DNA of 64,000 bases from Alitabrizicola rongguiensis (GTDB lineage Bacteria; Pseudomonadota; Alphaproteobacteria; Rhodobacterales; Rhodobacteraceae): positions 1 to 64,000 of the forward strand of contig NZ_JAKENF010000006.1 of the NCBI RefSeq assembly GCF_021491355.1. Reading direction: 5' to 3'. Under the pieces are notes generated by a model, which saw nothing but the letters and a program-made list of their open reading frames with translations, searched no databases and had not been told where the DNA came from. How positions within the stretch are numbered: the stretch's first letter is position 1; each line of letters starts with the position of its first letter. The translations under genes and the position numbers were made by a program. Below are positions 23-63,491 of the stretch, in pieces.

Positions 23-99
<77 letters not shown>

Positions 100-4103: not shown

Positions 4104-4106
4104 GAA

Positions 4107-45253: not shown

Positions 45254-45317
45254 GGTGCAGGAGGAGTCCCAGCTTCGTATTGGCATCGGCAATTGACTGT
45301 TCTCCAGCAAAACTGGT

Positions 45318-45770
45318 TCAGGCTTCACCACCGATCTCGATCTCGTCCTCGCTCCCCAGCAGCCATTTCTGTAACGTGCTGACCGCTTCGCTCACCCGCT
45401 CAGGCTTCCGCAAAGCGCACTCCCAGATCGTCGCCACGCGCCAGCCTGCCTCCAGAAGATCTCGTCGGACGGTGCTGTCTCTTGCAATGTTCGCTGCGAA
45501 CTTCGCCTGCCAGAATTCGGGGCGTGTCGAAGGGCTGGTTGTGTATCGACACCCCTCGTGACGATGCCAGAAGCAACCGTGCACGAAGACGACGGCATGG
45601 TACTTTGGGAGTACGAGGTCGGGCCGTCCTGGTACGACGCTGGAATGAAGCCGGAAGCGAAAGCCGCGCGCGTGCAGGGCTCGCCTGAGAGCAAGCTCTG
45701 GCTTCGTGTTCTTTCCGCGTATTCCGGACATCATCCGGGAACGGGTCAGCTCATCGACGATATCGGCCAT
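45318..45770 (-). CDS. vsr: Very short patch repair endonuclease Vsr
   Basis: The 150-aa enzyme nicks next to T in T:G mismatches made when 5-methylcytosine deaminates. Motifs include SRMMSGIRGKNTKPE, PGRPDLVLP with the active-site Asp, and GCFWHRHEGC with zinc and His ligands. ATG at 45770 gives the usual length. It is divergent from the cytosine methylase at 45837, the normal partner gene, with 66 bp between them. Confidence 0.93.
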   Translation of the reverse strand: MADIVDELTRSRMMSGIRGKNTKPELALRRALHARGFRFRLHSSVVPGRPDLVLPKYHAVVFVHGCFWHRHEGCRYTTSPSTRPEFWQAKFAANIARDSTVRRDLLEAGWRVATIWECALRKPERVSEAVSTLQKWLLGSEDEIEIGGEA

Positions 45771-45836
45771 TGTGTCCTGGTTTTTGTCCTTGAACCTGGT
45801 ATACACCGGCTGGGTGAATTTCGTCAGGAGCCTGAT

Positions 45837-47369
45837 TTGCCTTCCACTTTCGGCATTGTCGATCTGTTTGCCGGCCCGGGCGGACTTGGCGAAGGGTTTG
45901 CTTCCCTGGTCGAGGACGGCCATGCGCCGTTCCGGATCGGCATATCGGTCGAGAAGGAGGTGTCGGCCCATCGGACCCTGACGCTGCGCGCGTTCCTGCG
46001 CGAGTACCGCGTGCGTCATGGAGTCTTGCCGAAAGAATTCATCGATTTCCATGCTGGGCTGACATCTGAACCGGACTGGTCAGCCGTCGATCCAGGTGCA
46101 TGGCGGCATGCTGTTGAAGAGGCGCGTGCGCTCGAGCTTGGAACGGAAGCTGCTGCGACAGCAATCGACGGGGCAGTCGAGAAACTGAAAGCCGAGTACG
46201 ACGACACGGTCCTTATCGGCGGCCCGCCATGCCAGGCCTATTCCCTCGTGGGGCGAGCTCGGTCGAGAGGCAAGGTCGGATATGTCCCGGAGGAGGATGC
46301 GCGGCACTACCTCTTTCGAGAGTATATTCGGGTGTTGGACAAGCTCCGTCCGGCCGCCTTCGTGATGGAAAACGTCAAGGGCATACTCTCGTCGACGGTC
46401 GAGAGCCGACTGGTCTTCGAGATGCTGATGGAAGACCTGTCCTCGCTCGGTACTGGGCGGGACCATCACTACGAGCTGCGGGCAATCCGTATCCTGGATG
46501 GCCAGGCCGGCCTGAAGGAAGCGATGCAGCCATCCGACTTCATCGTCCGGGCCGAGGGGTTCGGCGTCCCACAGCGCCGCCACAGGGTGATCATCGTCGG
46601 GATCCGCTCTGATCTCGCGCACCGGGCCACGGGTGCCGAGATCGCCGTGTCAGGAGGGACCAGGACGGTCAGCGATGTCATCGGCTTCTTGCCCCCCCTG
46701 CGTAGCGGAATCAGCCGAGGTTACGACGACGCAACTGCGTGGCAGCGAGAAGTCACCGATGCCGCAAGACTGTTGGCCAGCATTTACAAGGGCAAGGATG
46801 ACGGCGCGCTTCGCGAAGCCTTTCAGTCCGTTTCAAGCAGGATGCGAGTTGCGTCACCAGCTGATCGCGCGGCCTCATGGCTTCCCGAAGGCTATGGCAT
46901 CGCGAACGATGAATTGGTGCAATGGCTCGAACGGCCAGACCTGCGCGCGATAGCTCAGCACGAGACCCGCGGGCATATGAAGTCGGATCTGGGCCGCTAC
47001 CTGTTCGCGGCCGTGTTCGGGTCTGTCCGTGGCTACAGCCCGAAGGCCGCTGATTTTCCCTTGGTGCTCAGCCCGGACCACCGCAACTGGCACAGCGGTG
47101 TCTTCAATGACCGCTTTCGGGTGCAGCTGGCGGACGAGGCTTCGACCACTGTCACGAGCCATATCTCGAAGGATGGTCACTACTTCATTCACCCTGATCC
47201 CATTCAGTGTCGCAGCCTGACAGTGCGCGAAGCTGCTCGTCTGCAGACCTTTCCCGACGATTACCTGTTCCTCGGCAACCGCACGCAGCAGTATGTCCAG
47301 GTTGGCAATGCTGTACCGCCGTTTCTTGCGAGGCAGATTGCCATGCTTGTCCTGAAAGCAGTGATCTGA
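45837..47369 (+). CDS. DNA cytosine-5 methyltransferase (DrmMII/Dcm-like)
   Basis: The 510-aa enzyme has motif I VDLFAGPGGLGEGF near residue 7, catalytic motif IV GGPPCQAYSLVGR, motif VI FVMENVKGI, motif VIII QRRHRVIIVGIR and motif X QVGNAVPPF. The start is TTG at 45837: AGGAG lies 6 bases upstream and motif I follows at once, while no ATG serves. In class 2 DISARM a cytosine-5 methylase (DrmMII) marks self DNA. It faces the drm operon tail to tail, with 26 bp between stops. Confidence 0.9.
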   Translation: MPSTFGIVDLFAGPGGLGEGFASLVEDGHAPFRIGISVEKEVSAHRTLTLRAFLREYRVRHGVLPKEFIDFHAGLTSEPDWSAVDPGAWRHAVEEARALELGTEAAATAIDGAVEKLKAEYDDTVLIGGPPCQAYSLVGRARSRGKVGYVPEEDARHYLFREYIRVLDKLRPAAFVMENVKGILSSTVESRLVFEMLMEDLSSLGTGRDHHYELRAIRILDGQAGLKEAMQPSDFIVRAEGFGVPQRRHRVIIVGIRSDLAHRATGAEIAVSGGTRTVSDVIGFLPPLRSGISRGYDDATAWQREVTDAARLLASIYKGKDDGALREAFQSVSSRMRVASPADRAASWLPEGYGIANDELVQWLERPDLRAIAQHETRGHMKSDLGRYLFAAVFGSVRGYSPKAADFPLVLSPDHRNWHSGVFNDRFRVQLADEASTTVTSHISKDGHYFIHPDPIQCRSLTVREAARLQTFPDDYLFLGNRTQQYVQVGNAVPPFLARQIAMLVLKAVI

Positions 47370-47395
47370 TCCTGGCAATCATTCACCCTGCGCTC

Positions 47396-49081
47396 TCAGT
47401 CCTCCGGCAACCCTTCCGACAGCCACTTGGCCTCGCTTCGGGATGACACGATGCAAAGGTAGGCCCGCGCGCGAGAGAACGCGACATAGGCCAGTTCGCG
47501 GCGGTCCATTTCATCGCCACTGGCAATCAGGATTATTGCCGGGCGCTCCAGACCCTTGAACCGCCGCACGGTATCCACCACCACATCCTCTAGCGCCATC
47601 GTTTCTGCATCTGTGAGTGGGATGCTGGTTCCGCTGCTTCTTTCGACGAAACTTGTGCGGGCGGCTGGTCCGTTGACAAGCACGGCAATGTCGCCAGGGG
47701 CAACTTCCTCGTTGAACACGAGCCGTCTAAGCTCCCTGTATGCCGCTTCGATTTTTTGATCAGCATTTTCGGCAGTGATCCAGGATACTTCGAGACCATC
47801 GGGTCCATCTGCGATTATCTCGGGACCGGAATAATGCACTGAAGCGGCACTGTGGATGTTCTTTGTGTTTCGGAGGTTCCGGGAAAGCCGAACCGGAATG
47901 ACACTCAGGTCGTGAACGCTAACCCCCGCGCTCTCGTAGACCCTCTGGTTGTTGTCCATGAACACACGCAGGTGTCCTCCATGGGTCAGGCAGGCATCGA
48001 TTGCGATCCACCAGTCGGCGCTGAAGTCCTGGCCTTCATCGACAACAATCGTGTCCCACCTGAGTGCAGGCTGAACCTCCACCGCGCGGTAGAGCGCGTG
48101 GGAAAGCGCTGTTTCATAAAGTTCCCGCTCACTGATATCAGAAGGTGGCGGAACACCAGCCTGATGCGAGATGCGCCCACACAGAGCGTGAAATCCGGCC
48201 ACCGTGAGGTTCTCGACGCCCTTCAGCTTTCGCTCGAGGTTCGTCGCGAGCGGCCGACTGTGACAGGTCAGAAGGGTCTTCCGTCCAGCCGCGGCAGACC
48301 TGATCGCTTCCTCGATTGCCACCACGGTCTTGCCAGTCCCTGCGCCTCCACGGATGAGCGCCCGGGGGATATCGGCGATGACGTCGAGGATATGGTACTG
48401 GGACGGTTCAAGGACGCGGAACTCCGTGTCGGCTTCTGCAAGAGCAGCGCCGATGCGGAAGCTGAGCGTGAAAGGATGCGCCAGCAGCCTTTCCAGCGCG
48501 GCGATGCCGTCGTGGCCCAGAGCCTCGCAATTGTCTGGCCGTTTCCCTGCCTTTAGTCGGTCGTCCAACCATCCGCGAAGACCATGCTGCAACTGGCGCG
48601 AACAACAGAAGATCGAGGCCGGGCGATCAGCTCCGAGGTTGCCGGGAGGCGAGCCCGTACCGGGAAAGATCACTCCATGGGCAGAATGAATGAAGCGCTT
48701 GGGCCATCTTGCTGACTCGTTGAGCCGCTTCAGGATCTCATGCTTTGCGCTTCGCGCCTGTGCAACCGGATCCTTGATCTTGTGGACGAAACCGCCGTGA
48801 TCCGTGCTGCGCCACTGACCGTCTCTCGGATCGAACGAGATTTCCTTCCCGCCCTTTACCTCGATGGCGAGGATGCCATGGATGGGGTGCGCGATCAGGA
48901 AATCGCATTCACCGTCCCTCTCGTTACCGAGACTGTCAGTGCCCAGCCAAGGGCTCGAGTAGAAGACATGAAAACTGTCGTCGAGGACGTCAGCGAGGCG
49001 ATCGTAAACGCGAACCTCAGCCCGACGTCTCGGATCATCGAGGACCGAGCGGGGGAGCTTCCTTGGCCAGAGCACCGCCAT
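47396..49081 (-). CDS. NERD-domain SF1 helicase
   Basis: The 561-aa protein has an N-terminal NERD nuclease-related domain (GECDFLIAHPIHGILAIEVK, with D...ExK residues at about 60-75) followed by a UvrD/DEXQ helicase: Walker A RGGAGTGKT near residue 240, DEGQDF, and C-terminal VDTVRRFKGLERPAIILIA and YVAFSRARAYL. Nuclease and helicase in one chain would suit DNA cleavage in a defence complex. Its ATG overlaps the drmB TGA, so the two are translated together. Confidence 0.88.
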   Translation of the reverse strand: MAVLWPRKLPRSVLDDPRRRAEVRVYDRLADVLDDSFHVFYSSPWLGTDSLGNERDGECDFLIAHPIHGILAIEVKGGKEISFDPRDGQWRSTDHGGFVHKIKDPVAQARSAKHEILKRLNESARWPKRFIHSAHGVIFPGTGSPPGNLGADRPASIFCCSRQLQHGLRGWLDDRLKAGKRPDNCEALGHDGIAALERLLAHPFTLSFRIGAALAEADTEFRVLEPSQYHILDVIADIPRALIRGGAGTGKTVVAIEEAIRSAAAGRKTLLTCHSRPLATNLERKLKGVENLTVAGFHALCGRISHQAGVPPPSDISERELYETALSHALYRAVEVQPALRWDTIVVDEGQDFSADWWIAIDACLTHGGHLRVFMDNNQRVYESAGVSVHDLSVIPVRLSRNLRNTKNIHSAASVHYSGPEIIADGPDGLEVSWITAENADQKIEAAYRELRRLVFNEEVAPGDIAVLVNGPAARTSFVERSSGTSIPLTDAETMALEDVVVDTVRRFKGLERPAIILIASGDEMDRRELAYVAFSRARAYLCIVSSRSEAKWLSEGLPED

Positions 49082-50940
49082 CAGCTTCTCCGAAGCATGT
49101 CTTCGAAGTATCCGAGCCCCGAACCCGTCCCGTCCCCGGTCAGCAGCGCGCGGTCAAGGAAGCTGTTGAAGGCCTCACATGATGTCTCGGGAGCAAGGCA
49201 GCATGCGTGGCAGACCGAATGGGAGTAGCTGTTGATCGCTCCCATCATATCCGTGATGCACAGCGGATCGGATGAGCACCACTCGATCGCGTCGATGGCA
49301 CGTTGCAGGATGCCCTCGATGCGCCCCGCCTTGCCCTGCCTTTCTAGCCCGCCGAGCGTTCCATCGGAGTCCGGTGTTGCGGTATAGATCAGAAGCCCAG
49401 CCATCTGCTCATCGCCCGTCCCGGCATAGATCCTCTCCTGAAGGGACGCGGAGGAGTATCCACACTCGAGCGTCAGTTGACGCATGAGCGCGTGCGCGAG
49501 GGTGTGACAGAGCATGTAGCGCGGGGTAATCGCCTGCGGCGGCTTTGCATCGTCGCCATAGCGTTCCTTCCAGTCCGCCTGGTGTCGCGTCTCGCACTCG
49601 GATACGCGCGCGATGACATCAGGTCGGGCTTCCCACGTCGCCAGCCGTTCCTCGTTCAATGCGAGGAAGATGCCTTCGCCTCGAACTTCAATCGCCGGCA
49701 GCCACTCAAGCGGAGCCTTGGAGAGCCGTGCCACTTCGGGTGAGTCGGGATCCCCAGGCGGATTGATCCGGGTGAATCCCTTGATGGCACGCACCTCACG
49801 AAGGCGGACAGCCCGTACAACTCTGAAGATCCACGGAGCTATATCAGGAGATACCGTTTCTCTTCGGGTTTCGAAGTCGATGTCGGGGGTCCGACTCCGA
49901 CCAGGCTCCGTGACGAATTGTCGGTATTCTGCCGGACGCAGGTCGTCGGTCCGCATCTGTCCGTATGAGGTGAGGCGCGCACGGATCGCCTCTGCCAGTT
50001 CGGCAGGTGACATCTCGAGCTCCTTCAGGATGCTCTCCAGGTCACCTTTAGCCAGGAATCCGATGTATTCCTCAAGCTTGGACAGGTCATCGAGATTCGT
50101 CAGGGAACTCCACCAGTCGCCCAGAACTTCCTGAAGACGGTCGGACCAGGGTGGGATGCTCAGGGCTGACTCCGTCACGGCAAAGTACAGGTTGGACGCA
50201 CCTCGCTGCACCGCGTACTGCTCCTTGCCGCAAGTTTCATCGCCATCGGCCAGCCAAGGTCTGTGCCCCCGGCATTTCGGCCCACGTTCCCAAGTCTTCT
50301 TCGAGAAAACGCCGTCCATCGACCGACGCGCGCCGCACTTGGGGCAACTGAGGATGAGGCCGGCAAGGCCGGGTTTCTCGGAACGCAGGATCAGGCCAGG
50401 ATGACGCTCCGCATTGTCACGCTTCGAAACCGTGCAATCCGGCTTGTGCCCCACCCACCAGTCCCAGGGGAACTCGTCGACGTGGCCATGCTTGCAGGCC
50501 ATCACGAAGCGGACGGGGATGACGAAGACCTTGCTGTCGCCATGGGATTTTTCCGTGCACGTAGCGCAGTAGCGATAGGCCTTGCCCGGATCGTTCTTCC
50601 ATCGCCGTTCCGGCTTGATGACATCGCAGCTGGGACATTGCAGCCATTTCGGGAAGCGAACGGCGACGAGACGTCGGGTATCCGGCTCGTCATCCTTTCC
50701 CCGCTCGAGCGTCACAGGGGGCGTCCTGAAGCCCTTCACGCCCAGCTTCTTCTGCAAGCGCGTCTCACGGATGACCTGAGGGTGGGCCAGACCTGCGGGG
50801 GGAAAGGACCGATCCCATTCCTCTAGGCCCGCCGCGATACCCGAAACAGCTCCTCCACCCGCCCTGAAATCCACCACCGAGCCGGGGCCAAATGTCGAAA
50901 CGACTGCGCTGCGACGCAAATCCTGAAGGTCATTCTTCAT
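49081..50940 (-). CDS. drmB: DrmB, DUF1998 protein of DISARM
   Basis: The 619-aa protein starts SAVVSTFGPGSVVDFRAGG, typical of DrmB. Zinc cysteines occur in CPSCDVI and CATCTEK (about residue 110-135) and CPKCGARR (about 200). The C-terminal DUF1998 domain shows HTLAHALMRQLTLECGYSSA and CHACCLAPETSCEAFNSFLD. DrmB acts with the helicase DrmA in phage restriction. The second ATG (50940) has AAAGG at good distance, so the one at 50949 is not preferred; the start overlaps drmA by 11 bp. Confidence 0.92.
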   Translation of the reverse strand: MKNDLQDLRRSAVVSTFGPGSVVDFRAGGGAVSGIAAGLEEWDRSFPPAGLAHPQVIRETRLQKKLGVKGFRTPPVTLERGKDDEPDTRRLVAVRFPKWLQCPSCDVIKPERRWKNDPGKAYRYCATCTEKSHGDSKVFVIPVRFVMACKHGHVDEFPWDWWVGHKPDCTVSKRDNAERHPGLILRSEKPGLAGLILSCPKCGARRSMDGVFSKKTWERGPKCRGHRPWLADGDETCGKEQYAVQRGASNLYFAVTESALSIPPWSDRLQEVLGDWWSSLTNLDDLSKLEEYIGFLAKGDLESILKELEMSPAELAEAIRARLTSYGQMRTDDLRPAEYRQFVTEPGRSRTPDIDFETRRETVSPDIAPWIFRVVRAVRLREVRAIKGFTRINPPGDPDSPEVARLSKAPLEWLPAIEVRGEGIFLALNEERLATWEARPDVIARVSECETRHQADWKERYGDDAKPPQAITPRYMLCHTLAHALMRQLTLECGYSSASLQERIYAGTGDEQMAGLLIYTATPDSDGTLGGLERQGKAGRIEGILQRAIDAIEWCSSDPLCITDMMGAINSYSHSVCHACCLAPETSCEAFNSFLDRALLTGDGTGSGLGYFEDMLRRS

Positions 50941-53900
50941 GCGTATCATCCTTTGCCCTTAGGACATGGGCCATCCTGAAGGGAGTTCCAGCCTCCACAG
51001 TCCGCATGGAGTTGAGGGTGGGCCAGGCGGCACCGGCGTCGCGACCGGCGGCCCGGCGAGCGGCAGCGCGCTCGGCACTCTGGAGAAGGGATTTCCCTCC
51101 CTTGTGGTCACTCCAGTAAACTGTGGGGGACCTTGCACGCCATGTGTCGAGGCGGCGCTCAAGCTCTCTTCGGACTTCAGTCTCTTCCGGATCGACCCGC
51201 TTCGCCCGCTCGACGAGCAGGTCGATGATGTCCATCGCCAGATCTTCCGCGTCGTCGTCCATGCTGGGAGAGTCGAGCATGTCGGGAACAAGGTGGCGCA
51301 CAGCGGCAACCAGTGCCGCATGCAGCGCCCTGTCGCGAGCCCGTGACGCGAAGGGAGTAACGCTGGTCGCCTCGACATCCCTGTAGAGCGTGCGGTGCCA
51401 GCTGCAGAACGTCTCGAAGTGAGAACGGTCGCGCGCCTTCGCGTTGTTGAGAACCGAGACGACAAGGCCGCTGACGTCTCCCCGCCCGACGCGGCTGGTC
51501 GACTGGATGTACTCGGCGATGGTCTTGGGTTGTCCGTTGACCAGCATCAGTCCCAGCCGCGAAATGTCCACGCCGACGCTGACCATGTTGGTCGCGAGAA
51601 CGGCATCGACAGCGCCAGGGAAACCGACCTTTATGTCTAGCACGTCGAGCATTCCGCGGATTTCTTCCTGCGTCCGCCGGGATGTAAGTTCCTCGACGTT
51701 GCTGAGGGGTCTTCTCTCCTCGGCGCGAGCATCAGCATAGAGCGCTATGCTGTCGGTGACGTCGTCCTGCATGAGGACGAGCGCACCTCCAAGCTCGCGA
51801 AGCGAGTTGAAGTACCCGACGAGCGTCCAGTAAGCGTCTCGGCGAACGTCATCGCTGAATGCCCCGTACGCCGTTTGCAGCAGGGAGCCCGCAACTGCCT
51901 GCAACGTGAACTTTGCCGATCGACCGGCCGTTGTGACACCGAGATAGCGTCTCCCCACAGCCTTCGGCCGCCGATCACGAACCGCGAAACCGGAATCGTC
52001 GTGATCTATCGCTGGCGGTGGGAACTGGAATGCTTCGCGATCGAAAAGGGCCAACACCTGTTCCGACGCTCTGCGGATCGTGGCGGTCGAGCCAATGACC
52101 TTTGCCCGGTGTCCGCGAGCGGCGAACATCAGGTCGAATGCCGCCTCATATGCGCCCGCGATCGTTCCCAGAGGACCGGAGATCAGATGCAGCTCGTCCT
52201 GGATGATGAGGTCAGGCGGAGAGCCACTCGAAACCCCAAGCAGGCCGTTGGTTCGCTTTTCTCGAACGATCTGAGCGAACTTGTCAGCCGTTCCGATGAG
52301 CAACGTCGGCCGCCTGTCGTAGACATCTTCGTCCACAGTGAAGACCGGCAGGATTCCGTGCATCTTGCACGTGCTGTTCGTGCATTTGGCATCAACGGGT
52401 GAAGTGGCGCTCGCCATCGACCAGGTCAGTTTCTCACCACAGGCTGGACAGCGGGCGAGCTGTTTTGGCGAAGCCACCTCCGAAGACCCTCGGAAGAAGG
52501 CACATGCGTCGGCACGCTTGTTGGGAGTAGCGTCTCCTCCGACCCAGAGGCCGATCGAGAAAGGTTCGTCACCTTGAAGCGGCAGGCCGTCGGGCGCAGA
52601 CTCGCGACCAGAGCGTATCGCCTCCAGAGCCACGATCATCGCGGCAGAGCGTGCGAACTGCTGGGTCGTGAGAAGTCGCAGCGTGTAGCGCATGAGGGCA
52701 CAGACACCACTGTGGTCACTCGGATCATCCGAGAGCCGACGATACACGGCGATGCACGCGATCAGCGCGAGGTATGCCTCGGTCTTGCCACCACCGGTGG
52801 GAAACCAGAGGAGGTCCATGACGCCCCGGTGCATGTGATCACGGATGACCGAGGATGGCGCACTGAGGAGCAGGAAGCCCAGCTGGAATGGGCGCCAGCG
52901 CAGGGGTCCGTGGCGGCTCTTTGAGTTGTCCCAAGAATGCTGCAGATGCATGGCCAGGTTTGCCAGCTGGAAAGCGCGGCGCAGACGCGGATCAGTGCCA
53001 AGCTGGTCAACCGATGCCCGCATGCGCCCAAGCGCCAGATCACATTGCGCTAGATGCGCCTCAGCCACGGCTCTCAGTTCTGATCGCACGTCTGAAGTAT
53101 CGTCGAGGCGCTTCCGCTGCACATTTATCCAACGGTCATAGGCATCGCAGAAAAGTTGCAATCCCTGCTTGAGGGTTGCTGCATCGGCGGAGGCCAGTGC
53201 CTCAGCCGAAAGCGGATCGAAACCCACGCTGTCCTTCCCAAGCTCGGAAAAGAATGGGTGGCCATTCGGATCGACGCCCTCGACGATCGCTGAAGGGAGC
53301 CAGGTCGTCCCGACCCATCGTGCAGTTGGGCGGGTTCCGGCTGCGTGGTCCAAGGACTCCCACTCGGCGGAGCAGACATGTCCGACAGCGAACTCGGCCA
53401 CGTTCCTGTACAGCAGAGCTCCGCTTTCCTCGTCACTCACGGCGGCGGTTCCATCGTCCCCCCCTTGATGCCGCGACGCCGCGCGCCGGGGGGGCTTCGG
53501 CACCAGCAAAGTGCCCTCGCAAGGCTCGACGCGAAGTGCCGTCTGGAACAGCGATGCAGCCTCGATCTCGTTTCTACCCTGTTCTGGGACTATCGAATTC
53601 ACGAGCGAGAGAGTGACGAGAACGGACTCACCTGCATTGATGCATCGGACACTGAGCGAGACGTTGGGTAGCCCGTCACCGTATTCCGCCAGCTCAATCT
53701 CACGCGTAGGTCCGGGCGGCAGATCAAGAACCGGAATCTCAGCCCTGTGCGGTTGGCGGACCCAGATGTCGACGTCGTCGCGATTTTCGATCCGATACGT
53801 GGCGAAGCTGCAGGTAACCCGCACTTGCGGGATACCACTGGACGCAACAACGCTGAATGATATGCCTGCCACGGAGGGCTTCTGGATCGAGCCAGTCCTG

Positions 53901-54124
53901 ACTGCATCGTTCTCGCCGTCGGTCTCATCGCCCGAGCCAGCGCCCGCGGTCCCGAGGCGTTCATCATCCTCGCCCGACATCGCCGTGCGCTGGGGCCAAA
54001 GGATGCCGGTGAGGTAGACATCGGAAGGACGCGCGGCCAGTTCCTCTTCCTCGGCACGGGGTCCGACCAGATCCTCGGCGAGCCTACAGGCGACGGTATC
54101 TCTGTCCAGTGATTTGTCTTGCAT
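50930..54124 (-). CDS. drmA: DrmA, DISARM SF2 helicase
   Basis: The 1064-aa helicase has Walker A FPTGGGKTEAYLAL near the middle, a DEAH-like IIQDELHLISGPLG, motif III GSTATIRRAS and the C-terminal VGVDISRLGLMLVNGQPK and STSRVGRGDVSG. This is the DISARM DrmA architecture (related to MrfA/YprA-like helicases). With DrmB it forms the DISARM core that loads on unmodified phage DNA. ATG at 54124 is chosen: it begins 4 bp after the previous stop, and the 41 upstream residues are within that gene. Confidence 0.9.
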   Translation of the reverse strand: MQDKSLDRDTVACRLAEDLVGPRAEEEELAARPSDVYLTGILWPQRTAMSGEDDERLGTAGAGSGDETDGENDAVRTGSIQKPSVAGISFSVVASSGIPQVRVTCSFATYRIENRDDVDIWVRQPHRAEIPVLDLPPGPTREIELAEYGDGLPNVSLSVRCINAGESVLVTLSLVNSIVPEQGRNEIEAASLFQTALRVEPCEGTLLVPKPPRRAASRHQGGDDGTAAVSDEESGALLYRNVAEFAVGHVCSAEWESLDHAAGTRPTARWVGTTWLPSAIVEGVDPNGHPFFSELGKDSVGFDPLSAEALASADAATLKQGLQLFCDAYDRWINVQRKRLDDTSDVRSELRAVAEAHLAQCDLALGRMRASVDQLGTDPRLRRAFQLANLAMHLQHSWDNSKSRHGPLRWRPFQLGFLLLSAPSSVIRDHMHRGVMDLLWFPTGGGKTEAYLALIACIAVYRRLSDDPSDHSGVCALMRYTLRLLTTQQFARSAAMIVALEAIRSGRESAPDGLPLQGDEPFSIGLWVGGDATPNKRADACAFFRGSSEVASPKQLARCPACGEKLTWSMASATSPVDAKCTNSTCKMHGILPVFTVDEDVYDRRPTLLIGTADKFAQIVREKRTNGLLGVSSGSPPDLIIQDELHLISGPLGTIAGAYEAAFDLMFAARGHRAKVIGSTATIRRASEQVLALFDREAFQFPPPAIDHDDSGFAVRDRRPKAVGRRYLGVTTAGRSAKFTLQAVAGSLLQTAYGAFSDDVRRDAYWTLVGYFNSLRELGGALVLMQDDVTDSIALYADARAEERRPLSNVEELTSRRTQEEIRGMLDVLDIKVGFPGAVDAVLATNMVSVGVDISRLGLMLVNGQPKTIAEYIQSTSRVGRGDVSGLVVSVLNNAKARDRSHFETFCSWHRTLYRDVEATSVTPFASRARDRALHAALVAAVRHLVPDMLDSPSMDDDAEDLAMDIIDLLVERAKRVDPEETEVRRELERRLDTWRARSPTVYWSDHKGGKSLLQSAERAAARRAAGRDAGAAWPTLNSMRTVEAGTPFRMAHVLRAKDDTHEE

Positions 54125-54128
54125 GAGC

Positions 54129-56006
54129 TCAGCCCCGATCAGTTCTGTAAGACGGAAATCCTGCAATTTTAGGTGCAAGCAGAAATCCAGAGGACGCCCA
54201 CGGCTCATGCAAGCTCTCAGCATCACCATCCTCTGGCGCCAGCACAATGGATGAACAGCCTTGCGCTTTCACATAATCAATCTGGTCCGGGATTCTAAAA
54301 GAAACGCCGCCAGGTTTGAATGATATTTCTTGAATGTCTCTCGAGAAGCTGCCCGACATGACGCCAACACACGTTTCAGGTTCGCCGAAGTGAATCCCAT
54401 ATTTGAGATCGCTGCCTGATCGCTTGACTAGATGGTATGCAGTGACAGAGCTTGAGACGGCGGCAAGAAAGTCTTGAGCGGCTGTAGCCTCAGCCGACTT
54501 GAACTCAGTCGCACCGACAAGAAACCTTGGCTCGATGTCACCATTCCGCCCAATTTCTATATACACCTGTTGTTCGCGATAGTTTTGATTGGAACAGAAC
54601 AGGCGTCCAGAATTTAGCCGATCGGTCCGCAAGGACTTGTTTGGCGCAACATAAAGCTCCTTGCGGGCGCGTGTCGCACCGACAAACAGAACACGGGCTT
54701 CTTCGACGACATCTTCTACCAACCGCGACTTGCGGGCCTCGGGCATCATCAGGATTACCACATCCGCCTCACGTCCCTTGCTCGCGTGGATCGTGCTTAG
54801 CGTGAAACCCTGCAAGCCGAACTCTGACCGGGCTAACTCGATTGGAGGGCGGGCCCCCGCCAAGCGCCGCCTCAACTGCAGCATGTCCACCACCCCATCA
54901 TGACGACCCGCCAGTTTCAGAAGCGACAGCCACGCGGATGACCAATCTTCTCGGGCCTTGCCCTTGCCTTCAACATTGGCAAACCAGAGCTCACGAAATT
55001 TTTCCTCAGACACGAAAGGTTCCAAGAAATGCGAAAAGCACAGGGCAAGCCAAGCAGGCAGCCCAGGATCATAATCTGAGAGGCGAAGACTGTGGGCATC
55101 CGCCTGACCTTGAGAAAAGTCTAGAACATCCGCTCGATTTCGGAACAGGACAAGAAGGTCTCGCGGAGCATCTGCAGGGTGCTGTTTGATGAATTCGTCG
55201 AAATCACCAGCAGAAAGATCCTCAATCGCTTTTGCCACCCAATCTCGAAGCTCTAGAACCTGATGCTCCGACTTCATCAACTCGGTGCGCAAATCCGAAT
55301 AGATTGTCTTTAGTTGAGCCGAAGATGTGCGATGAACTTGACCGAGAGGCAGGCTTGAGAAATTCCCGAGTCTTCCGGCGCGTACCCGCTCTAGCAAAGA
55401 TCCGTCATTGGAACGAATGTTGCGCTTGGAATTACGCTTGGAGAAACCATAGATCGCCTGAGCCTCGTCAGCAAAAATTGTCACCCCACAATCAGTCGGT
55501 AGATGCCCAACCATTGATTCTATGAGTTCGGCACGGGCCCCGACAATGTCCTGGGCCTCATCAATTATGACATGCTCGACTCTGGAATACTCGTCAGCCA
55601 CATCCTCATCAGACGTTAGCAATGCGATTACGCTCTCAATGTTATCGTCGTACGAACGTGTCAGACGGGCACTGGGGTCGTGCCCAGATCGGACCGCCCA
55701 CGCGTGGGAGTCGATTGTCGCGTTGTGAATAGCATAGGATGCTTCACCGACGTACGAGTGAAGGCGTGCACGTATTTCCGCCGCGGCTGCTCTGGTGAAG
55801 CTAATCATCAAGATGTTACTCGGCTCGATGTCTTCTTTAGTGATCAGGTGTGCAAGACGAGCACATGCGACAGCTGTCTTGCCCGTGCCAGGTCCTGCTT
55901 CGACTATCAGTCGAGCATCACTGTCCGCAGTGATCACGCGCATCTGCTCGGCGTCCCAGGCCGTAAGCAAATGGCTTGCTTCAACTACTGTGCCCTCATC
56001 CAACAT
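54129..56006 (-). CDS. UvrD-like SF1 helicase B (tandem paralogue)
   Basis: The 625-aa helicase has Walker A VEAGPGTGKTAVACARLAHL near residue 35, Walker B HVIIDEAQD, motif III ADEAQAIYGF, and C-terminal TLSTIHASKGREADVVILMM and VLFVGATRARKELYV. It is similar along its length to the helicase upstream. ATG at 56006 is chosen because it gives the same length as that paralogue (625 and 626 aa); a longer frame begins inside the neighbour. The DNA is noticeably more AT-rich than its paralogue. The C-terminal 120 residues match no known domain. Confidence 0.85.
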   Translation of the reverse strand: MLDEGTVVEASHLLTAWDAEQMRVITADSDARLIVEAGPGTGKTAVACARLAHLITKEDIEPSNILMISFTRAAAAEIRARLHSYVGEASYAIHNATIDSHAWAVRSGHDPSARLTRSYDDNIESVIALLTSDEDVADEYSRVEHVIIDEAQDIVGARAELIESMVGHLPTDCGVTIFADEAQAIYGFSKRNSKRNIRSNDGSLLERVRAGRLGNFSSLPLGQVHRTSSAQLKTIYSDLRTELMKSEHQVLELRDWVAKAIEDLSAGDFDEFIKQHPADAPRDLLVLFRNRADVLDFSQGQADAHSLRLSDYDPGLPAWLALCFSHFLEPFVSEEKFRELWFANVEGKGKAREDWSSAWLSLLKLAGRHDGVVDMLQLRRRLAGARPPIELARSEFGLQGFTLSTIHASKGREADVVILMMPEARKSRLVEDVVEEARVLFVGATRARKELYVAPNKSLRTDRLNSGRLFCSNQNYREQQVYIEIGRNGDIEPRFLVGATEFKSAEATAAQDFLAAVSSSVTAYHLVKRSGSDLKYGIHFGEPETCVGVMSGSFSRDIQEISFKPGGVSFRIPDQIDYVKAQGCSSIVLAPEDGDAESLHEPWASSGFLLAPKIAGFPSYRTDRG

Positions 56007-56092
56007 TGGGTACTCATCACCCGTTTCAGCCGAGTCACCAACGTGTGCACGGCATCCAACTGAATCCTCTTTGTTCTGGTCCTGAATGAGTG

Positions 56093-57973
56093 CTACCTCC
56101 GGCTGAAAAAGAAGAAAGGGGGGAACGCGACGATTCTCGGCGTCAGGACGAAACCGGAGGAAGCCCAAGGTTCATTCAGTGTCTCAAGTTCAGTGTCGTC
56201 TGGACTCAGGACGACCGTTGCACAGCCCTGACCTCTTACATGGTTCACATAACCCGGTGGCTTGTGGCTATTCTTCTGGTTCTTGTTCGCGAGTATCTCC
56301 CACAGGTCGTATGTGAGGTTGCGCGACAGGGCGCCGACGCATGGACCCTCGTTGCCAGCACGAATTCTGTATCGCCAATCGAGATTGGGATCGGCTTCCA
56401 GCTTATAGGTGGTTACGATATCGGCGACCTTGGCAAGAAATGCCTGTCCCGCTGCGGCGTCGGCTTTGCTGAATTCGCTTCGACCAACGAGACCGCGCGC
56501 AATGATGTCGCCATCGCGGCCGATCTCAACCATCGTCGATTTGCCGTTTCTGGCCGAACGATGAACCCGTCCTGATGGCAATGTTGATGCTCTGAAGGAG
56601 TTGCTCTCCCCGACGATTAGGGATGCGCGTGCACGCGTGGCGCCGACAAAGAGCACACGCGTCTCTTCTTTCTCGTCCTCGATGCTCTCGAACTCTGCGC
56701 CGTTCGGCAGCAGCAGAACGACGTTGCTGGCCTCGCGACCCTTGCTCGCGTGTATCGTCCCGACGATCGGTCCGTGGAGGCCGTATTCGGGTAGAGTCAG
56801 CTCGACCGGAGGGCGGGTCTGGCCTAGGCGCCTTCTCAGCCTCTGCATGTCAACAGAGCCGTCCTTGCGGCCTGCAATGCGCATGAGGTGCTGCCAAGCT
56901 TCAGCTGGACCATAATGCGGCGCAGCCTTGTTCTCGATGCGCGCTGCCCAGAGGTCTAGAAAGCGTCGTTCGGCGATAAACGGGTCAACAAAGTCCGCGA
57001 AACAGATCGCCAGCCACGCCGGCAGCGTTACCCCATATCCTGACAGACGCAGCCGATGTGGAAGGTCGCAGAATTGTGATGCCATCAGGACCTCGGCACG
57101 GGTTCGGAAGAGCAGAAGGTCGTCGCTTGTGAAGTCCGCAACTTTCATCTGCGTCCACTTCAGCCCCTGTTGGTCCGCCAGCGCCCGGATCTTCTCTGCT
57201 GTCTGGCCGTGCAACCCGTCGCGGTGTTTCTGCTTGTCGAGAACATCACTCCGCAGTTCGGAGAATATCTTGCGAAGTCCAGGGGACGATGTGCGATAAA
57301 TTTCCTTCAGGATGAGAGTTCTAAAGCCCAGCGCGTTCGCGCTCAGCAAACGGTCAAGCAGCGGCTTGCCGGGCTCTGAAGCTCCTACCTTGCGACGTCC
57401 CATGCTGTCGTCGGAGAAGCCATAGATCGCTTGGGCCTCGTCGGCGAACACCGTGACTCCGCAGGCCGAAGGTAGCCGATTCACCAGAGCCTCTATCAGG
57501 TCCGCTCGCTGCCCGACGAGGTCTTGCGCCTCGTCAATGACGACGTGTTCGATTTGCGCCAGCTCGTCTGCCACGTCCTCATCAGTCTTCAACAGCGCAA
57601 TGACGCTGGCAATGTTCTCTTCGTAGGACCCGGTCAGCCTAGCGTTCGGGTCATGGCCGGAGTGGATGGACCACGCATGCGAATCGATAGTCGCGATCCG
57701 GATGGCAAAGGATGCATCGCCGACGTAGGAGTGCAGCCGTGCACGGATTTCTGCCACCGCTGTCCTGGTGAAGCTGATCATCCAGGTGTTGCTTGCCTCA
57801 ATATCTTCTTCGTTGATCAGGTAGGCGAGGCGCGCGCAGGCGACGGCTGTCTTTCCAGTTCCGGGACCTGCTTCAACGACAAGCCGAGCATCCGTATCTG
57901 CCTCGATCACCCTGCGCTGATCTGCATCCCAGCCTGTATCCAGCGGACCTTTCCCGGCAATATTCATGGCCAT
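56093..57973 (-). CDS. UvrD-like SF1 helicase A (tandem paralogue)
   Basis: The 626-aa helicase has Walker A VEAGPGTGKTAVACARLAYL, Walker B HVVIDEAQD, motif III ADEAQAIYGF, and C-terminal VGTIHASKGREASNVVLLLP and VLFVGATRARASLIV. It lies 8 bp after the WYL regulator stop, with GGGAG before the ATG. Both paralogues end in near-identical tails (PWASSGF). It could act with the DrmA/DrmB core or be a separate DNA-unwinding module; GajB of Gabija is a UvrD-like relative in function, but its partner GajA is absent. Confidence 0.87.
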   Translation of the reverse strand: MAMNIAGKGPLDTGWDADQRRVIEADTDARLVVEAGPGTGKTAVACARLAYLINEEDIEASNTWMISFTRTAVAEIRARLHSYVGDASFAIRIATIDSHAWSIHSGHDPNARLTGSYEENIASVIALLKTDEDVADELAQIEHVVIDEAQDLVGQRADLIEALVNRLPSACGVTVFADEAQAIYGFSDDSMGRRKVGASEPGKPLLDRLLSANALGFRTLILKEIYRTSSPGLRKIFSELRSDVLDKQKHRDGLHGQTAEKIRALADQQGLKWTQMKVADFTSDDLLLFRTRAEVLMASQFCDLPHRLRLSGYGVTLPAWLAICFADFVDPFIAERRFLDLWAARIENKAAPHYGPAEAWQHLMRIAGRKDGSVDMQRLRRRLGQTRPPVELTLPEYGLHGPIVGTIHASKGREASNVVLLLPNGAEFESIEDEKEETRVLFVGATRARASLIVGESNSFRASTLPSGRVHRSARNGKSTMVEIGRDGDIIARGLVGRSEFSKADAAAGQAFLAKVADIVTTYKLEADPNLDWRYRIRAGNEGPCVGALSRNLTYDLWEILANKNQKNSHKPPGYVNHVRGQGCATVVLSPDDTELETLNEPWASSGFVLTPRIVAFPPFFFFSRR

Positions 57974-57981
57974 AGAGCTCC

Positions 57982-58896
57982 CTACCGAAAAATTTCGTGT
58001 GTTGCTGGCTTATTCAGGTCCGCGCTTAACGCTGATCGCGCTGCATCACCGAGCACGTCACGGTTCAAAAGCACGATCTGCTGGTCCTGGGGCTTCCTCG
58101 CGGCTGGATCGGTATCGAGCCCAAGCCGACGAAGCGCATAGTAGAGCAACGCCCGTCGAACGCTGATCTCAGCCTTGCCACCCTTCATGCCGTAGTCGAG
58201 CGCGATCACCTTGGCTTGCGTATCGGACAAGGCAGGATGGGGGCCGATTTCCAGCGTTGCGAAGGTGTGCCAGTCCTGATCGCTCTCGGCCAGAACGTCC
58301 GACCCGCGCGATGCGCGGATGTCGAGGATCCGGGACAGCAGGAAATCCTTGAACATCTCGTCGGTGAGGCAGAATGCGCGGGTGTGCCAGCGGAAGCCGT
58401 CGAACGCGATGGCATGTGGCGCGATCCAGCGCCACCGGGGCTCAGGATTGGACAGGGACTGATACTGCACCTCGATCGCCTCGGATCGGCGGATCGCGTC
58501 GACCACGGACCGAAGGGTTGCGGGATCGACGCCACGCGCCGGGGTGGGGGCGGAATCGTAGGCGGGCAGGCCTGAAATCCAGCAGTCGTCGTGATCGAGG
58601 ATGTCGTCGGCGACTGATCGCAGCTGGGCGAGGTACCGACCGGCATCGAGCTTGTCGAACACCGGCTTGAAGCCTGGTTGGCGCACATAGGTCCGCAGGC
58701 TGCGGTTGTAGTCCATGTTGTGAGGGGCGAGGCCGATGTAGCGACTCAGGTCGGATGACGCCTGGTTCACAGACAGCCCGAACTGCGTCATCACATCGCT
58801 GCGGTTCACATGCCCCTCCCAGAACAGGCGGAACTCGATGAACTCGAGCCTTTGCTCGACCCCCCAACGAAGCTCCGACCTGTCGTTGCTCACCAC
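57982..58896 (-). CDS. WYL-domain transcriptional regulator, CapW/BrxR-like
   Basis: The 304-aa protein has an N-terminal winged helix (VNRSDVMTQFGLSVNQASSD), a WYL domain (RRSEAIEVQYQSLSNPEPRW, DGFRWHTRAFC) and a C-terminal WCX extension. CapW and BrxR, regulators of CBASS and BREX defence loci, share this design and repress their own operon. Here it is the first gene of the defence operon. GTG at 58896 has GGGAG upstream; GTG at 58893 is also possible. A palindrome overlapping the likely promoter is at 58918-58936. Confidence 0.88.
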   Translation of the reverse strand: MVSNDRSELRWGVEQRLEFIEFRLFWEGHVNRSDVMTQFGLSVNQASSDLSRYIGLAPHNMDYNRSLRTYVRQPGFKPVFDKLDAGRYLAQLRSVADDILDHDDCWISGLPAYDSAPTPARGVDPATLRSVVDAIRRSEAIEVQYQSLSNPEPRWRWIAPHAIAFDGFRWHTRAFCLTDEMFKDFLLSRILDIRASRGSDVLAESDQDWHTFATLEIGPHPALSDTQAKVIALDYGMKGGKAEISVRRALLYYALRRLGLDTDPAARKPQDQQIVLLNRDVLGDAARSALSADLNKPATHEIFR

Positions 58897-58917
58897 GCTC
58901 TCCCGTCATCGGTCGAT

Positions 58918-58936
58918 GCGCATGGAAATTATGCGC
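58918..58936 (-). promoter_or_regulatory. Palindromic operator candidate for the WYL regulator
   Basis: Perfect arms GCGCAT (58918-58923) and ATGCGC (58931-58936) flank a 7-base centre. Read on the minus strand the right arm includes CATAAT, a good -10 box, 22 bp upstream of the GTG. A second inverted repeat, CCCA-N5-TGGG, lies at 58938-58950. Autoregulation by the WYL protein is inferred. Confidence 0.55.
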
Positions 58937-59014
58937 GCCCAATTTCTGGGCTTTCTTCGACCGTAGCCGCGCGATGCTTGGGGATCAATCGAAAAGGGAA
59001 GGGTTGGCGCGCAA

Positions 59015-60169
59015 TTATCCCAAGGATTGCCGCAGGTTCTGCGCGACGGCATCGGCCGCCATCCGAACTGGTTCCGCCGCGAGATGGGCGTATCGCGCCG
59101 TGGTCTGGACCTGCGTATGGCCAAGGAGCTTGCCGATCATCGGCAGGCCCTGACCCGACGCCACGGCCGTGGACGCGAAGGTGTGGCGCAGGTCGTGGAT
59201 GCGGACGTCCTTGACCCCTGCGCGGGCACGGACGCGTTGCCAGAAGGGTTGCAGATCGCTCAGGGGCTTGCCGGGCAACGTGCCGGTAATCACCCACGGA
59301 TTGCCGTCGATGCGCTGGGCGCCCCGCAGCAGATCCACCACCGGCTGGCCAACGTGGACGACCTTCGCCCCTGTCTTGGAATCCGGCAGGCGCAGGGCAG
59401 GGACGTCGAGATCGACGTAGGACCATTTCAGCGACATGATCTCGTTCAGGCGGCATCCGGTCAGGATCAGCAGACGCGCAGCAAGGATGGCCGAAGGCAG
59501 TTCCACCCCTTCCGCTTCCATTTCGCGCAGCACCTCGCCGATCCGGCGCAGCTCCGCCGCGCGCAGGAACCGTTCACGTTTCTCCTCAGGGTATTTCCGT
59601 ATGTGCTTGCGCGGGTTGGTCCCGTCCGGACGCAGACCCCACATCTCGGCGAGGCTGAACATCTTCGAGACCACCTCAAGGCAGCGATTGGCCTGATATG
59701 GGATGTGCCGCAAGTCGTGGTGGAACTTGGCGACATCCGCCCGCGTGATCCCCGTGACCGTCAGCGGCCCGAGTGCGGGCAAGATGAAGCGCTGCAGGTT
59801 CCGGCGATACTCCTTTCCCGTGCTGGCCTTTACGCGGATGGCGATGTGTTCCTTGTCGAACCGTTCGGCCAGCTCCTTGATGGTGATGGCCTTCCGCCCT
59901 GTGTCCCGTTCGGCGGCTGGGTCCTGTCCGTTGCGCACAGCGGCCACGATGGTAATGGCCCGGGTGCGCGCCTGTTCGCAGGTCAGCACGGTGGTGGGGC
60001 CGAGACTAATCCGCCTCGAGCGGCGTCCGGCGCGATATTGCACGACATAGCCTTTGCGCCCGCTTGGCAGCACTCGAAGTCCGAAGCCAGGGATGTCACT
60101 GTCCCAAACGAAGTATTCGGCGGCCTGGACCTCTGCGGTGTCGACGATGCGCTTTGTGAGTTTGGGCAT
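59015..60169 (-). CDS. int: Tyrosine recombinase (phage integrase)
   Basis: The 384-aa integrase has the N-terminal DUF4102-like arm-binding region (DSDIPGFGLRVLPSGRKGYV), a SAM-like core-binding domain, and the catalytic set: Arg in TGCRLNE, Lys in SKTGAKVV, HDLRH, GHT and final Tyr in TTARYAHL. It inserts the element at the tRNA-fMet gene. ATG at 60169 is chosen because the conserved domain starts at once; the upstream 79 residues are unrelated. It lies 3.3 kb from the right att copy, with accessory genes between. Confidence 0.93.
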   Translation of the reverse strand: MPKLTKRIVDTAEVQAAEYFVWDSDIPGFGLRVLPSGRKGYVVQYRAGRRSRRISLGPTTVLTCEQARTRAITIVAAVRNGQDPAAERDTGRKAITIKELAERFDKEHIAIRVKASTGKEYRRNLQRFILPALGPLTVTGITRADVAKFHHDLRHIPYQANRCLEVVSKMFSLAEMWGLRPDGTNPRKHIRKYPEEKRERFLRAAELRRIGEVLREMEAEGVELPSAILAARLLILTGCRLNEIMSLKWSYVDLDVPALRLPDSKTGAKVVHVGQPVVDLLRGAQRIDGNPWVITGTLPGKPLSDLQPFWQRVRARAGVKDVRIHDLRHTFASTAVASGQGLPMIGKLLGHTQVQTTARYAHLAAEPVRMAADAVAQNLRQSLG

Positions 60170-60508
60170 GGGAGATCGGCTTTCGGGTTGTCCGGCTTCC
60201 ACAGTGTGCAACGCGGATGGATAGTCAACGAACACATTGATATCGCGTATAAAAAGGAAAATCTGCGCAATCACACGCAGGGGTCGCATCGCAGTCGTGA
60301 GCGGAAGGGATGGTCCGTACGAATCAGAGCGCGGGTTGGCTACTGGTCGCGGATGGACGGATGAAGGTCTGCTGCCGAAAGCCGTGATGATGAGAGACTT
60401 CCGCACGCGCCGTAAAAGAGGCTTGGGGTGCCCAGTTAGTCCGTGACAATGGCACCCGGATTAATGAGACATATTGACATGTCGCATTAATCAGCCTAAA
60501 TCATCCGC
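60170..60508. other. Intergenic region between int and the MerR-like gene
   Basis: The 339-bp gap is without a convincing gene. It holds the int promoter on the left and, on the right, the palindromic promoter of the MerR-like gene (60460-60502). The DNA is more AT-rich around 60225-60265 and near 60460-60500. Confidence 0.5.
60460..60502 (+). promoter_or_regulatory. Promoter within a 32-bp palindrome, MerR-like gene
   Basis: ATTAATG-A-GACAT (60460-60472) mirrors ATGTC-G-CATTAAT (60479-60491) around a 6-base centre, with one mismatch. TTGACA (60474-60479) and TAAATC (60497-60502) are 17 bp apart. The start site would fall at or near the ATG (60509), suggesting a leaderless message. The palindrome overlaps the -35 box, so the encoded regulator probably binds here. 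Confidence 0.65.
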
Positions 60509-63444: not shown

Positions 63445-63491
63445 GGCTCATAACCTGAAGGCCGCAGGTTCAAATCCTGCCCCCGCAACCA
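63445..63491 (+). repeat. attR core: duplicated 3' end of tRNA-fMet, 47 bp
   Basis: Identical to 53-99. The bases before it do not continue the tRNA (GTAAC instead of GTCA), so this is a fragment, not a gene. It marks the right end of the 63.4-kb element. The minus-strand serine recombinase reads through it and ends within it. Confidence 0.9.

What the first reader, a model, noticed from the sequence alone, without database searches (positions are those of the whole stretch)
45318..58896. DISARM-like locus with no DrmC, carrying three SF1 helicases instead
DrmA, DrmB and a cytosine-5 methylase together identify DISARM of the class 2 type. In described systems a PLD nuclease (DrmC) completes the core, and class 2 also has DrmE. 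No HxK-type PLD motif is seen in any open frame here. A NERD-helicase is fused into the operon after drmB by start-stop overlap, and two UvrD-like helicases plus a WYL regulator precede drmA. The order regulator, helicase A, helicase B, drmA, drmB, NERD-helicase is tightly packed on one strand, which points to a functional unit. The NERD domain could supply the missing nuclease.
Basis: partly seen in the sequence, partly recalled or inferred. Interest (0 to 1): 0.9.

Follow-up and report, generated by a model that had tools for sequence, protein, structure and literature searches.

The report
DISARM-like defence operon with NERD nuclease-helicase
A prophage in an alphaproteobacterium carries an untested anti-phage gene cluster that keeps the DNA-sensing core of the known DISARM system but has a helicase-nuclease where its usual nuclease would be and adds UvrD-type helicases, a gene order that recurs in many other bacteria.

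Summary
On the minus strand, 58896 to 47396, lie a WYL regulator, two UvrD-like helicases, DrmA, DrmB and a NERD-nuclease/SF1-helicase. A DrmMII-type cytosine methylase and a Vsr nuclease follow. Scans showed no DrmC, DrmE, DrmD or DrmMI; PLD-domain hits in the genome lie on other contigs. The order UvrD-DrmA-DrmB-NERD-helicase occurs in 51 of 103 DrmB loci compared (a set enriched for this clade) and in 2 of 17 from an even draw. NERD-helicase after DrmB and DrmC never share a locus (0 of 103). UvrD-bearing DrmAB form one clade. Key catalytic residues are invariant. DrmA keeps an acidic trigger-loop-like segment and the methylation-sensing valine of studied DISARM. I conclude that this is a DISARM-like class, not described in the text I read, in which a NERD helicase-nuclease stands in for DrmC and a dedicated UvrD helicase is core; the second UvrD is a rare duplication (3 of 68 loci). 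Defence activity is inferred, not tested. Bell et al. 2025 mention many uncharacterised DISARM-like classes.

The parts
47396..49081 (-). NERD nuclease domain fused to SF1 (UvrD/RecD-like) helicase, 561 aa; candidate effector in the drmC position
   Evidence: Pfam NERD 39.7 bits, UvrD_C_2 35.7; PADLOC RTasNERD-Hel E 2.7e-52; E22, D60, E74, K76, Q108 and Walker lysine K251 in 66 of 66 rows, two of them duplicates
49081..50949 (-). DrmB (MZB/DUF1998 protein)
   Evidence: NCBIfam DrmB_fam 516.5 bits against cut-off 240; PADLOC DrmB E 3.4e-82; profile A1 matches DrmB of 7S9V, E 1e-119
50930..54124 (-). DrmA (YprA-family SF2 helicase), about 1064 aa from the ATG where relatives begin to align; the ORF is open from 54247
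   Evidence: PADLOC DrmA E 2.7e-194; NCBIfam DrmAS 849 bits, below cut-off 950; 7S9V DrmA E 4e-127; sensor valine conserved
54129..56006 (-). UvrD2, second UvrD-like helicase, paralogue of UvrD1; the ORF is open from 56168, start inferred
   Evidence: Pfam UvrD-helicase E 2e-29; 52% identical to UvrD1; a second UvrD in 3 loci
56093..57973 (-). UvrD1, UvrD/GajB-like SF1 helicase with a C-terminal ~160-aa domain of no known family
   Evidence: Pfam E 7.2e-27; K41, D147 and E148 in 73 of 73 UvrD rows; AlphaFold2 pLDDT 86; C-terminal domain without Pfam match at E 1
57982..58896 (-). WYL-domain regulator upstream of UvrD1
   Evidence: Pfam WYL E 2.2e-11
45837..47369 (+). C5 cytosine DNA methylase of DrmMII type (TTG start inferred from the 510-aa relative in L001)
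   Evidence: Pfam DNA_methylase E 1.3e-41; PADLOC DrmMII E 1e-81
45318..45773 (-). Vsr-type mismatch endonuclease, divergent from the methylase (start inferred)
   Evidence: Pfam Vsr E 9.4e-29; TIGR00632 133.9 bits above cut-off 97.85
59015..60406 (-). Tyrosine integrase of the prophage
   Evidence: Pfam Phage_integrase E 1.7e-19; phrog_1 integrase E 3.3e-57
53..99 (+). attL-like 47-bp direct repeat = 3' part of tRNA-Met 23-99
   Evidence: exact repeat, ARAGORN
63445..63491 (+). attR-like 47-bp direct repeat, right end of the prophage
   Evidence: exact copy of 53-99

Best explanation
The locus is an anti-phage system of the DISARM kind, belonging to a distinct class of DrmAB operons: [UvrD helicase]-DrmA-DrmB-[NERD nuclease/SF1 helicase], often with a 5mC methylase and Vsr nearby. 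Proposed mechanism: the DrmMII-type methylase marks resident DNA; DrmAB, held off by an acidic trigger loop, loads on free or single-stranded ends of incoming or replicating phage DNA and is slowed by 5mC; the dedicated UvrD helicase unwinds or feeds that DNA; the NERD-helicase, in the position of DrmC, cuts the unwound strand. Vsr repairs T:G mismatches from deaminated 5mC, and WYL controls transcription. Shown here: gene content, order, conservation, intact active-site residues, NERD-helicase and DrmC in the same position but never together. Inferred: defence activity, complex formation, direction of unwinding, methylation protection. It is carried by a temperate phage, which would protect its lysogen from rival phages, its own DNA being protected by the methylase.
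For: DrmA and DrmB homology. Conserved order: 51 of 103 deduplicated DrmB loci have UvrD-DrmA-DrmB-NERD-helicase; NERD-helicase after DrmB and DrmC never together (0 of 103); UvrD plus DrmC in 5; median gaps -9 (70 loci), -4 (101) and -1 (62) bases, measured on mechanical ORF starts. UvrD-bearing DrmAB form one clade (21 of 35 rows, SH-aLRT 97; the 99-row FastTree agrees). UvrD is closely tied to this operon: in 72,556 plasmid records a tblastn at E 1e-15 hits 8 records, and all 8 hold DrmB within about 5 kb. NERD residues E22, D60, E74, K76, Q108 and Walker lysine in 66 of 66 rows; UvrD K41, D147, E148 in 73 of 73. Sensor valine (V1296 of Serratia DrmA) is V in 69 of 70 UvrD-class rows, I in one; acidic trigger-loop-like segment kept. 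Methylase present in 37 of 53 UvrD loci with long flanks against 4 of 14 without UvrD. DISARM biochemistry: PMC9142583, four sections read.
Against: No experiment. The 80 loci were sought with a query built from this clade, so 51 of 103 is not a prevalence; in the even draw the full order is 2 of 17 DrmB loci, and both of these are also in the 80. 10 UvrD loci have neither NERD-helicase nor DrmC after DrmB (9 with nothing on that strand, 1 with an unrecognised frame), so the effector is not always there. L076, whose DrmA is close to the window's (1266 bits), has a methylase and no recognised UvrD before DrmA. 12 of 41 UvrD+NERD loci with long flanks have no methylase in view. NERD-helicases also occur outside this class: 7 of 15 plasmid records are in UvrD-drmAB loci, and the one in Sphingomonas naphthae sits beside a DUF3883 gene. 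No PDB chain resembles the NERD-helicase by sequence at E 0.01, and I made no model of it.
Confidence: 0.62

Rival explanations
1. Class 2 DISARM that lost DrmC and DrmE, with UvrD and NERD helicases as unrelated neighbours in a defence island.
For: DrmMII-type methylase, DrmAB core, other defence-type genes around several of the loci.
Against: Adjacency and co-direction of UvrD, DrmA, DrmB, NERD-helicase conserved across divergent loci, one clade; 8 of 8 plasmid records with a UvrD hit have DrmAB beside it.
Confidence: 0.05
2. Only UvrD-DrmA-DrmB-NERD is the system; the Dcm/Vsr pair is an independent module that travels with it, and DrmAB discriminates by DNA structure alone.
For: Dcm/Vsr position and orientation vary, the Dcm proteins differ between loci, and 12 of 41 UvrD+NERD loci with long flanks lack a methylase within view.
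Against: Methylase in 29 of 41; the window's methylase is closest to PADLOC DrmMII; the 5mC-sensing valine is kept.
Confidence: 0.25
3. A DNA repair or recombination helicase-nuclease set (like MrfAB or AddAB) used by the prophage for its own replication rather than defence.
For: YprA family includes repair helicases (PMC12458937, text read); the prophage also has SbcC/SbcD-like genes.
Against: Similar operons sit on plasmids and in loci where the window's phage genes were not detected; no DrmA or DrmB was seen in the visible part of 40 related phage slots, and one has Gabija there; DrmA and DrmB are split as in DISARM.
Confidence: 0.08

Closest known systems
DISARM class 2 (DrmMII, DrmE, DrmA, DrmB, DrmC)
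   Same: DrmA, DrmB, 5mC methylase of DrmMII type
   Different: no DrmC or DrmE found; UvrD helicase before drmA; NERD-helicase after drmB; DrmA below NCBI's DISARM cut-off
DISARM class 1 (DrmD, DrmMI, DrmA, DrmB, DrmC)
   Same: DrmAB core, trigger-loop-like segment, sensor valine
   Different: no DrmD, DrmMI or DrmC found; DrmA lacks the long N-terminal part, which carries an EVE-like domain in class 1 according to PMC12458937
ARMADA type II (Bell et al. 2025, PMC12458937)
   Same: YprA-family helicase with a GajB-like UvrD helicase and a methylase, several helicases in one operon
   Different: helicase and DUF1998 part are separate genes here; no BrxHII or PglX found; no RelE part recognised in the UvrD, which comes first; Vsr is a separate gene, not fused
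TALON (Bell et al. 2025, PMC12458937)
   Same: YprA helicase with a NERD nuclease
   Different: no TPR-CSD or TBP match among the locus proteins scanned; NERD is fused to an SF1 helicase; DISARM-type split DrmA/DrmB
DISARM-like operons with ShdA (RmuC-domain) proteins in Pseudomonas (PMC10270631, passages)
   Same: DISARM-like operon with an additional DNA-acting component
   Different: RmuC domain there, NERD-helicase and UvrD here; I did not test these loci for overlap
Gabija GajB; NERD-helicases of DRT systems
   Same: family resemblance of UvrD1/2 and of the NERD-helicase (PADLOC best hits)
   Different: no GajA or reverse transcriptase among the hits shown for the locus proteins

Membership tests
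DISARM class 2 | DrmA | tested here: inconclusive
   PADLOC DrmA E 2.7e-194, but NCBIfam DrmA equivalog 849 bits, below cut-off 950
DISARM class 2 | DrmB | tested here: met
   516.5 bits against cut-off 240
DISARM class 2 | DrmC (PLD nuclease) | tested here: not met
   none among locus proteins; whole-genome PLDc_2 hits on other contigs only; a DrmC query gave one weak hit, E 1.1e-4, 26% identity, on another contig
DISARM class 2 | DrmE | tested here: not met
   no PADLOC DrmE among the hits shown for the locus proteins at E 0.01 and for the methylase at E 0.001; lists cut at 25 families for three proteins; not searched genome-wide
DISARM class 2 | DrmMII cytosine methylase | tested here: met
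   best PADLOC hit DrmMII, E 1e-81
DISARM class 1 | DrmD and DrmMI | tested here: not met
   not among the hits shown for window proteins 45318-60406; not searched genome-wide
[quoted passage not shown]
   DrmA and DrmB are separate genes; no BrxHII or PglX among the hits shown
Gabija | GajA beside GajB | tested here: not met
   no GajA among the hits shown for window proteins 45318-60406
DISARM (any class) | anti-phage activity | not testable with these tools
   needs plating assays

The most novel reading that the evidence does not exclude
This is a third DISARM class with its own effector chemistry: a several-motor machine in which methylation-sensing DrmAB licenses a UvrD helicase and a NERD nuclease-helicase to unwind and degrade phage DNA, in the manner of AddAB or RecBCD. 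It would supply the nuclease step left open for studied DISARM, with NERD and DrmC exchanged in the effector position at least once, and it moves between hosts partly as large cargo of temperate phages.
Probability: 0.4. Interest if true: 0.75.

Novelty: new variant of a known kind. Interest (0 to 1): 0.62.

Why it matters
The structural study of DISARM leaves open which nuclease acts after DrmAB, since DrmC is dispensable and often missing (PMC9142583, discussion read, which proposes recruited PLD proteins). A class in which a NERD helicase-nuclease sits in place of DrmC, with invariant catalytic residues, gives a directly testable answer for part of the family. It also adds a cassette of about 13.6 kb to known phage-borne defence cargo; the P2/P4 hotspots are described as about 1-5 kb (PMC9122126, passages).

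Tried and rejected
DrmC supplied from elsewhere in the genome: rejected; the PLDc_2 hits are in 499-, 734- and 946-aa frames on other contigs, the last below the cut-off, and the DrmC query hits only the 499-aa frame weakly. att sites directly flanking the defence locus: no exact direct repeat of 12 bases or more between 44300-47450 and 58700-62000; the repeat found instead bounds the whole prophage. The tRNA-Met copy at the end of contig C7 as an empty site: rejected, its downstream DNA differs from that behind attR apart from a 50-base stretch of 80% identity; I take it as a second tRNA-Met copy and the contig break as an rRNA-operon repeat (inference). Identity of the UvrD C-terminal domain: model of high confidence but no PDB match at E 0.001 or better (best 0.37, BrxL); in the viral library two HIRAN-domain proteins are among the top five (E 0.025 and 0.33). 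Too weak to claim; a HIRAN-like end-binding role is a lead only. The full UvrD1 model matched UvrD/PcrA/Rep first and GajB at rank 25. The ~1000-aa divergently transcribed protein of one subclade had no family in the copies scanned; not followed. INPHARED phages: no DrmB match in 50,697 records. Of 80 IMG/VR loci with the same tail gene, 40 had at least 1.5 kb downstream and none showed DrmA or DrmB in the part held. Of 10 proteins from such slots scanned with PADLOC, 4 had hits at E 1e-10 and 6 had none.

Literature: searches. Seen: PMC12458937 outline, parts 1-4 of 8, figure legends and find passages, supplements not readable; PMC9142583 outline and four sections; find passages only of PMC9866893, PMC11705971, PMC9252829, PMC10270631, PMC10952713, PMC9122126, PMC13192584; the Ofir 2018 paper is not held and is known to me only through these papers and recall. 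None described this gene order in the text seen. Most subscription papers and all supplements were out of reach, so prior description is not excluded.
Full report
What is there. On the minus strand the window holds, in transcription order, a WYL regulator (58896-57982), two UvrD-like SF1 helicases (57973-56093 and about 56006-54129), DrmA (about 54124-50930), DrmB (50949-49081) and a NERD-nuclease/SF1-helicase (49081-47396). Behind it stand a DrmMII-type cytosine methylase on the plus strand (about 45837-47369) and a divergent Vsr nuclease (45318-45773). Refined starts come from the position where relatives begin to align and the sequence itself. In 2-kb steps G+C is 0.54-0.64 from 46 to 60 kb against 0.64-0.71 for the phage genes from 8 to 44 kb.

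No DrmC or DrmE found. Pfam and PADLOC scans of the locus proteins show neither (PADLOC lists are cut at 25 families for the two UvrD proteins and the methylase). A six-frame search of the whole genome with PLDc_2 gives five hits, all on contigs C6, C7 and C8, none on the window's contig C10; a DrmC query gives one weak hit on C8. DrmB occurs once. [quoted passage not shown]

A conserved operon. I compared 105 DrmB loci: seven plasmid-collection records, 80 from a genome scan seeded with this clade, 17 from an even draw over class and phylum and the window; two are duplicates, leaving 103. UvrD is found in 68, NERD-helicase after DrmB in 60, both in 51, DrmC in 16, UvrD with DrmC in 5, NERD-helicase with DrmC in 0. 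Median gaps between neighbours are -9, -4 and -1 bases. Because the scan was seeded with this clade these are not prevalences. The even draw found DrmB over the family cut-off in 8 of 385 and 11 of 398 genomes, the window's own in both. Its 17 other loci divide into 4 with DrmC, 2 with the full UvrD-DrmA-DrmB-NERD order, 6 with a NERD-helicase-like gene beside DrmAB but no UvrD (four upstream of DrmA, two downstream of DrmB, the one in L126 with only 198 bits), and 5 with neither, one of them on a 3.4-kb contig.

Phylogeny. On concatenated DrmA+DrmB the UvrD-bearing loci form one clade (35 rows, 21 with UvrD, SH-aLRT 97; the 99-row FastTree agrees, with a warning about long branches). On the midpoint-rooted trees its sister group is the NERD-helicase-without-UvrD type; the DrmC-type loci without UvrD lie apart. 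Inside the UvrD clade one subgroup has DrmC instead of the NERD-helicase and another has no recognised effector, so the effector position has been exchanged. An exception outside the tree is L076: its DrmA is close to the window's, but a methylase and no recognised UvrD precede it. The second UvrD occurs in the window, L010 and L050 only, as one well-supported branch.

UvrD belongs to the operon. In 72,556 plasmid records UvrD1 hits 8 records at E 1e-15, and every one has DrmB within about 5 kb on the same strand (the Tsukamurella operon; one second place in that record was not examined). The NERD-helicase is less exclusive: 15 records, 7 in such operons; of the other eight I opened two, one beside a disrupted DrmAB and one beside a DUF3883 gene.

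Function of the parts. In 66 NERD-helicase rows (two of them duplicates) E22, D60, E74, K76, Q108 and the Walker lysine are invariant; the reading as a PD-(D/E)xK site is recalled knowledge plus the family description in PMC12458937. In 73 UvrD rows K41 and D147-E148 are invariant, so both copies in the window look active. DrmA aligns with Serratia DrmA (7S9V) from about residue 215 on. The window's DrmA has about 36 residues before the YLTGILWP motif, against 164-208 in the class-1-like rows L006, L007 and L112; DrmC-type rows such as L078 are short there too, and some mechanical ORFs of the UvrD class read longer. A 45-54-residue acidic stretch remains at the place of the trigger loop in the 18 UvrD-class rows printed (median 49 over 70 rows). 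The valine that aligns with V1296, proposed as methylation sensor, is V in 69 of 70 UvrD-class rows and 29 of 29 others. The UvrD C-terminal domain folds confidently (pLDDT 95) but has no clear relative.

Mechanism. Taken with published DISARM biochemistry (DrmAB binds 5'-overhang DNA, its ATPase falls on 5mC DNA, DrmC is dispensable), the likeliest scheme is: methylase marks self; DrmAB loads on unmodified ends; UvrD unwinds; the NERD-helicase degrades. The last two steps are inference, and so is defence itself.

Carrier. The window is nearly all prophage: an exact 47-bp repeat at 53-99 (3' part of tRNA-Met) and 63445-63491, S24-type repressor, helicase and primase, terminase, portal, tape measure and tail genes, a GTA-like tail protein, and the integrase at 59015-60406. 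The defence locus lies between the last tail gene (ends 45253) and the integrase. The same tail genes flank DrmAB loci in L001, L060 and L068, and one of them (DUF2793) the viral contig L131; L120, a DrmC-type locus, has weaker tail matches. IMG/VR gave five DrmB relatives, two of them 98% identical in the part present. In relatives of this phage the slot behind the tail varies; one carries GajA and GajB (885 and 749 bits). No DrmB was found in 50,697 INPHARED records. Archaeal proviruses with class 2 DISARM genes are on record (PMC11705971, passage), so prophage carriage as such is not new.

Novelty. Bell et al. 2025 state that the DISARM-like clade holds many uncharacterised classes (legend read) and describe ARMADA, BRIGADE and TALON; in the text and legends I read, this order is not described, and my six literature searches did not find it. 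RmuC-domain ShdA proteins in DISARM-like operons of Pseudomonas are reported (PMC10270631, passages). I rate it a new variant of a known kind.

Noticed in passing
window 53-63491: An apparently complete 63.4-kb prophage in tRNA-Met with a GTA-like tail module; the DISARM-like locus is its cargo. The window starts at base 1 of contig C10.
   Followed up: partly
L150:13539-17226 (IMG/VR), and L139-L218 downstream of the DUF2793 tail gene: The stretch behind the tail genes of related phages is variable cargo: Gabija (GajA+GajB) in L150, GajB-like helicase in L172 (and by a weaker test L163), a LmuB-like ATPase in L167; 6 of 10 proteins scanned had no PADLOC hit.
   Followed up: partly
L061:1326-4361, L004:3358-6324, L082:1522-4461 and others: A divergently transcribed protein of about 980-1050 aa, without family match in the copies scanned, recurs upstream of UvrD in one subclade; in L004 it is followed by a DpdE/BrxHI/DrmD-like SNF2 helicase.
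   Followed up: partly
L114:755-5805, L127:1-5733, L115:508-5093, L118: A sister type of DrmAB locus with a protein of about 900-1330 aa (no PADLOC match in the three scanned; DUF1232 match in L114) and a NERD-helicase-like gene upstream of DrmA, without UvrD or DrmC recognised.
   Followed up: partly
L001:3707-9804: In Shinella sp. PSBB067 a type III restriction-modification-like pair stands between the WYL gene and UvrD of an otherwise matching operon.
   Followed up: partly
window 372-5324: SbcC- and SbcD-like genes at the left end of the prophage.
   Followed up: no
L219:6627-18570 (Tsukamurella plasmid): Actinobacterial UvrD-DrmA-DrmB operon with an annotated cytosine methylase upstream and a further annotated helicase and methylase-type gene downstream instead of NERD or DrmC.
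   Followed up: no
L076:2827-10930: DrmA close to the window's, preceded by a methylase on the other strand and an unidentified 604-aa frame, with no UvrD recognised: an exception to the gene order.
   Followed up: partly
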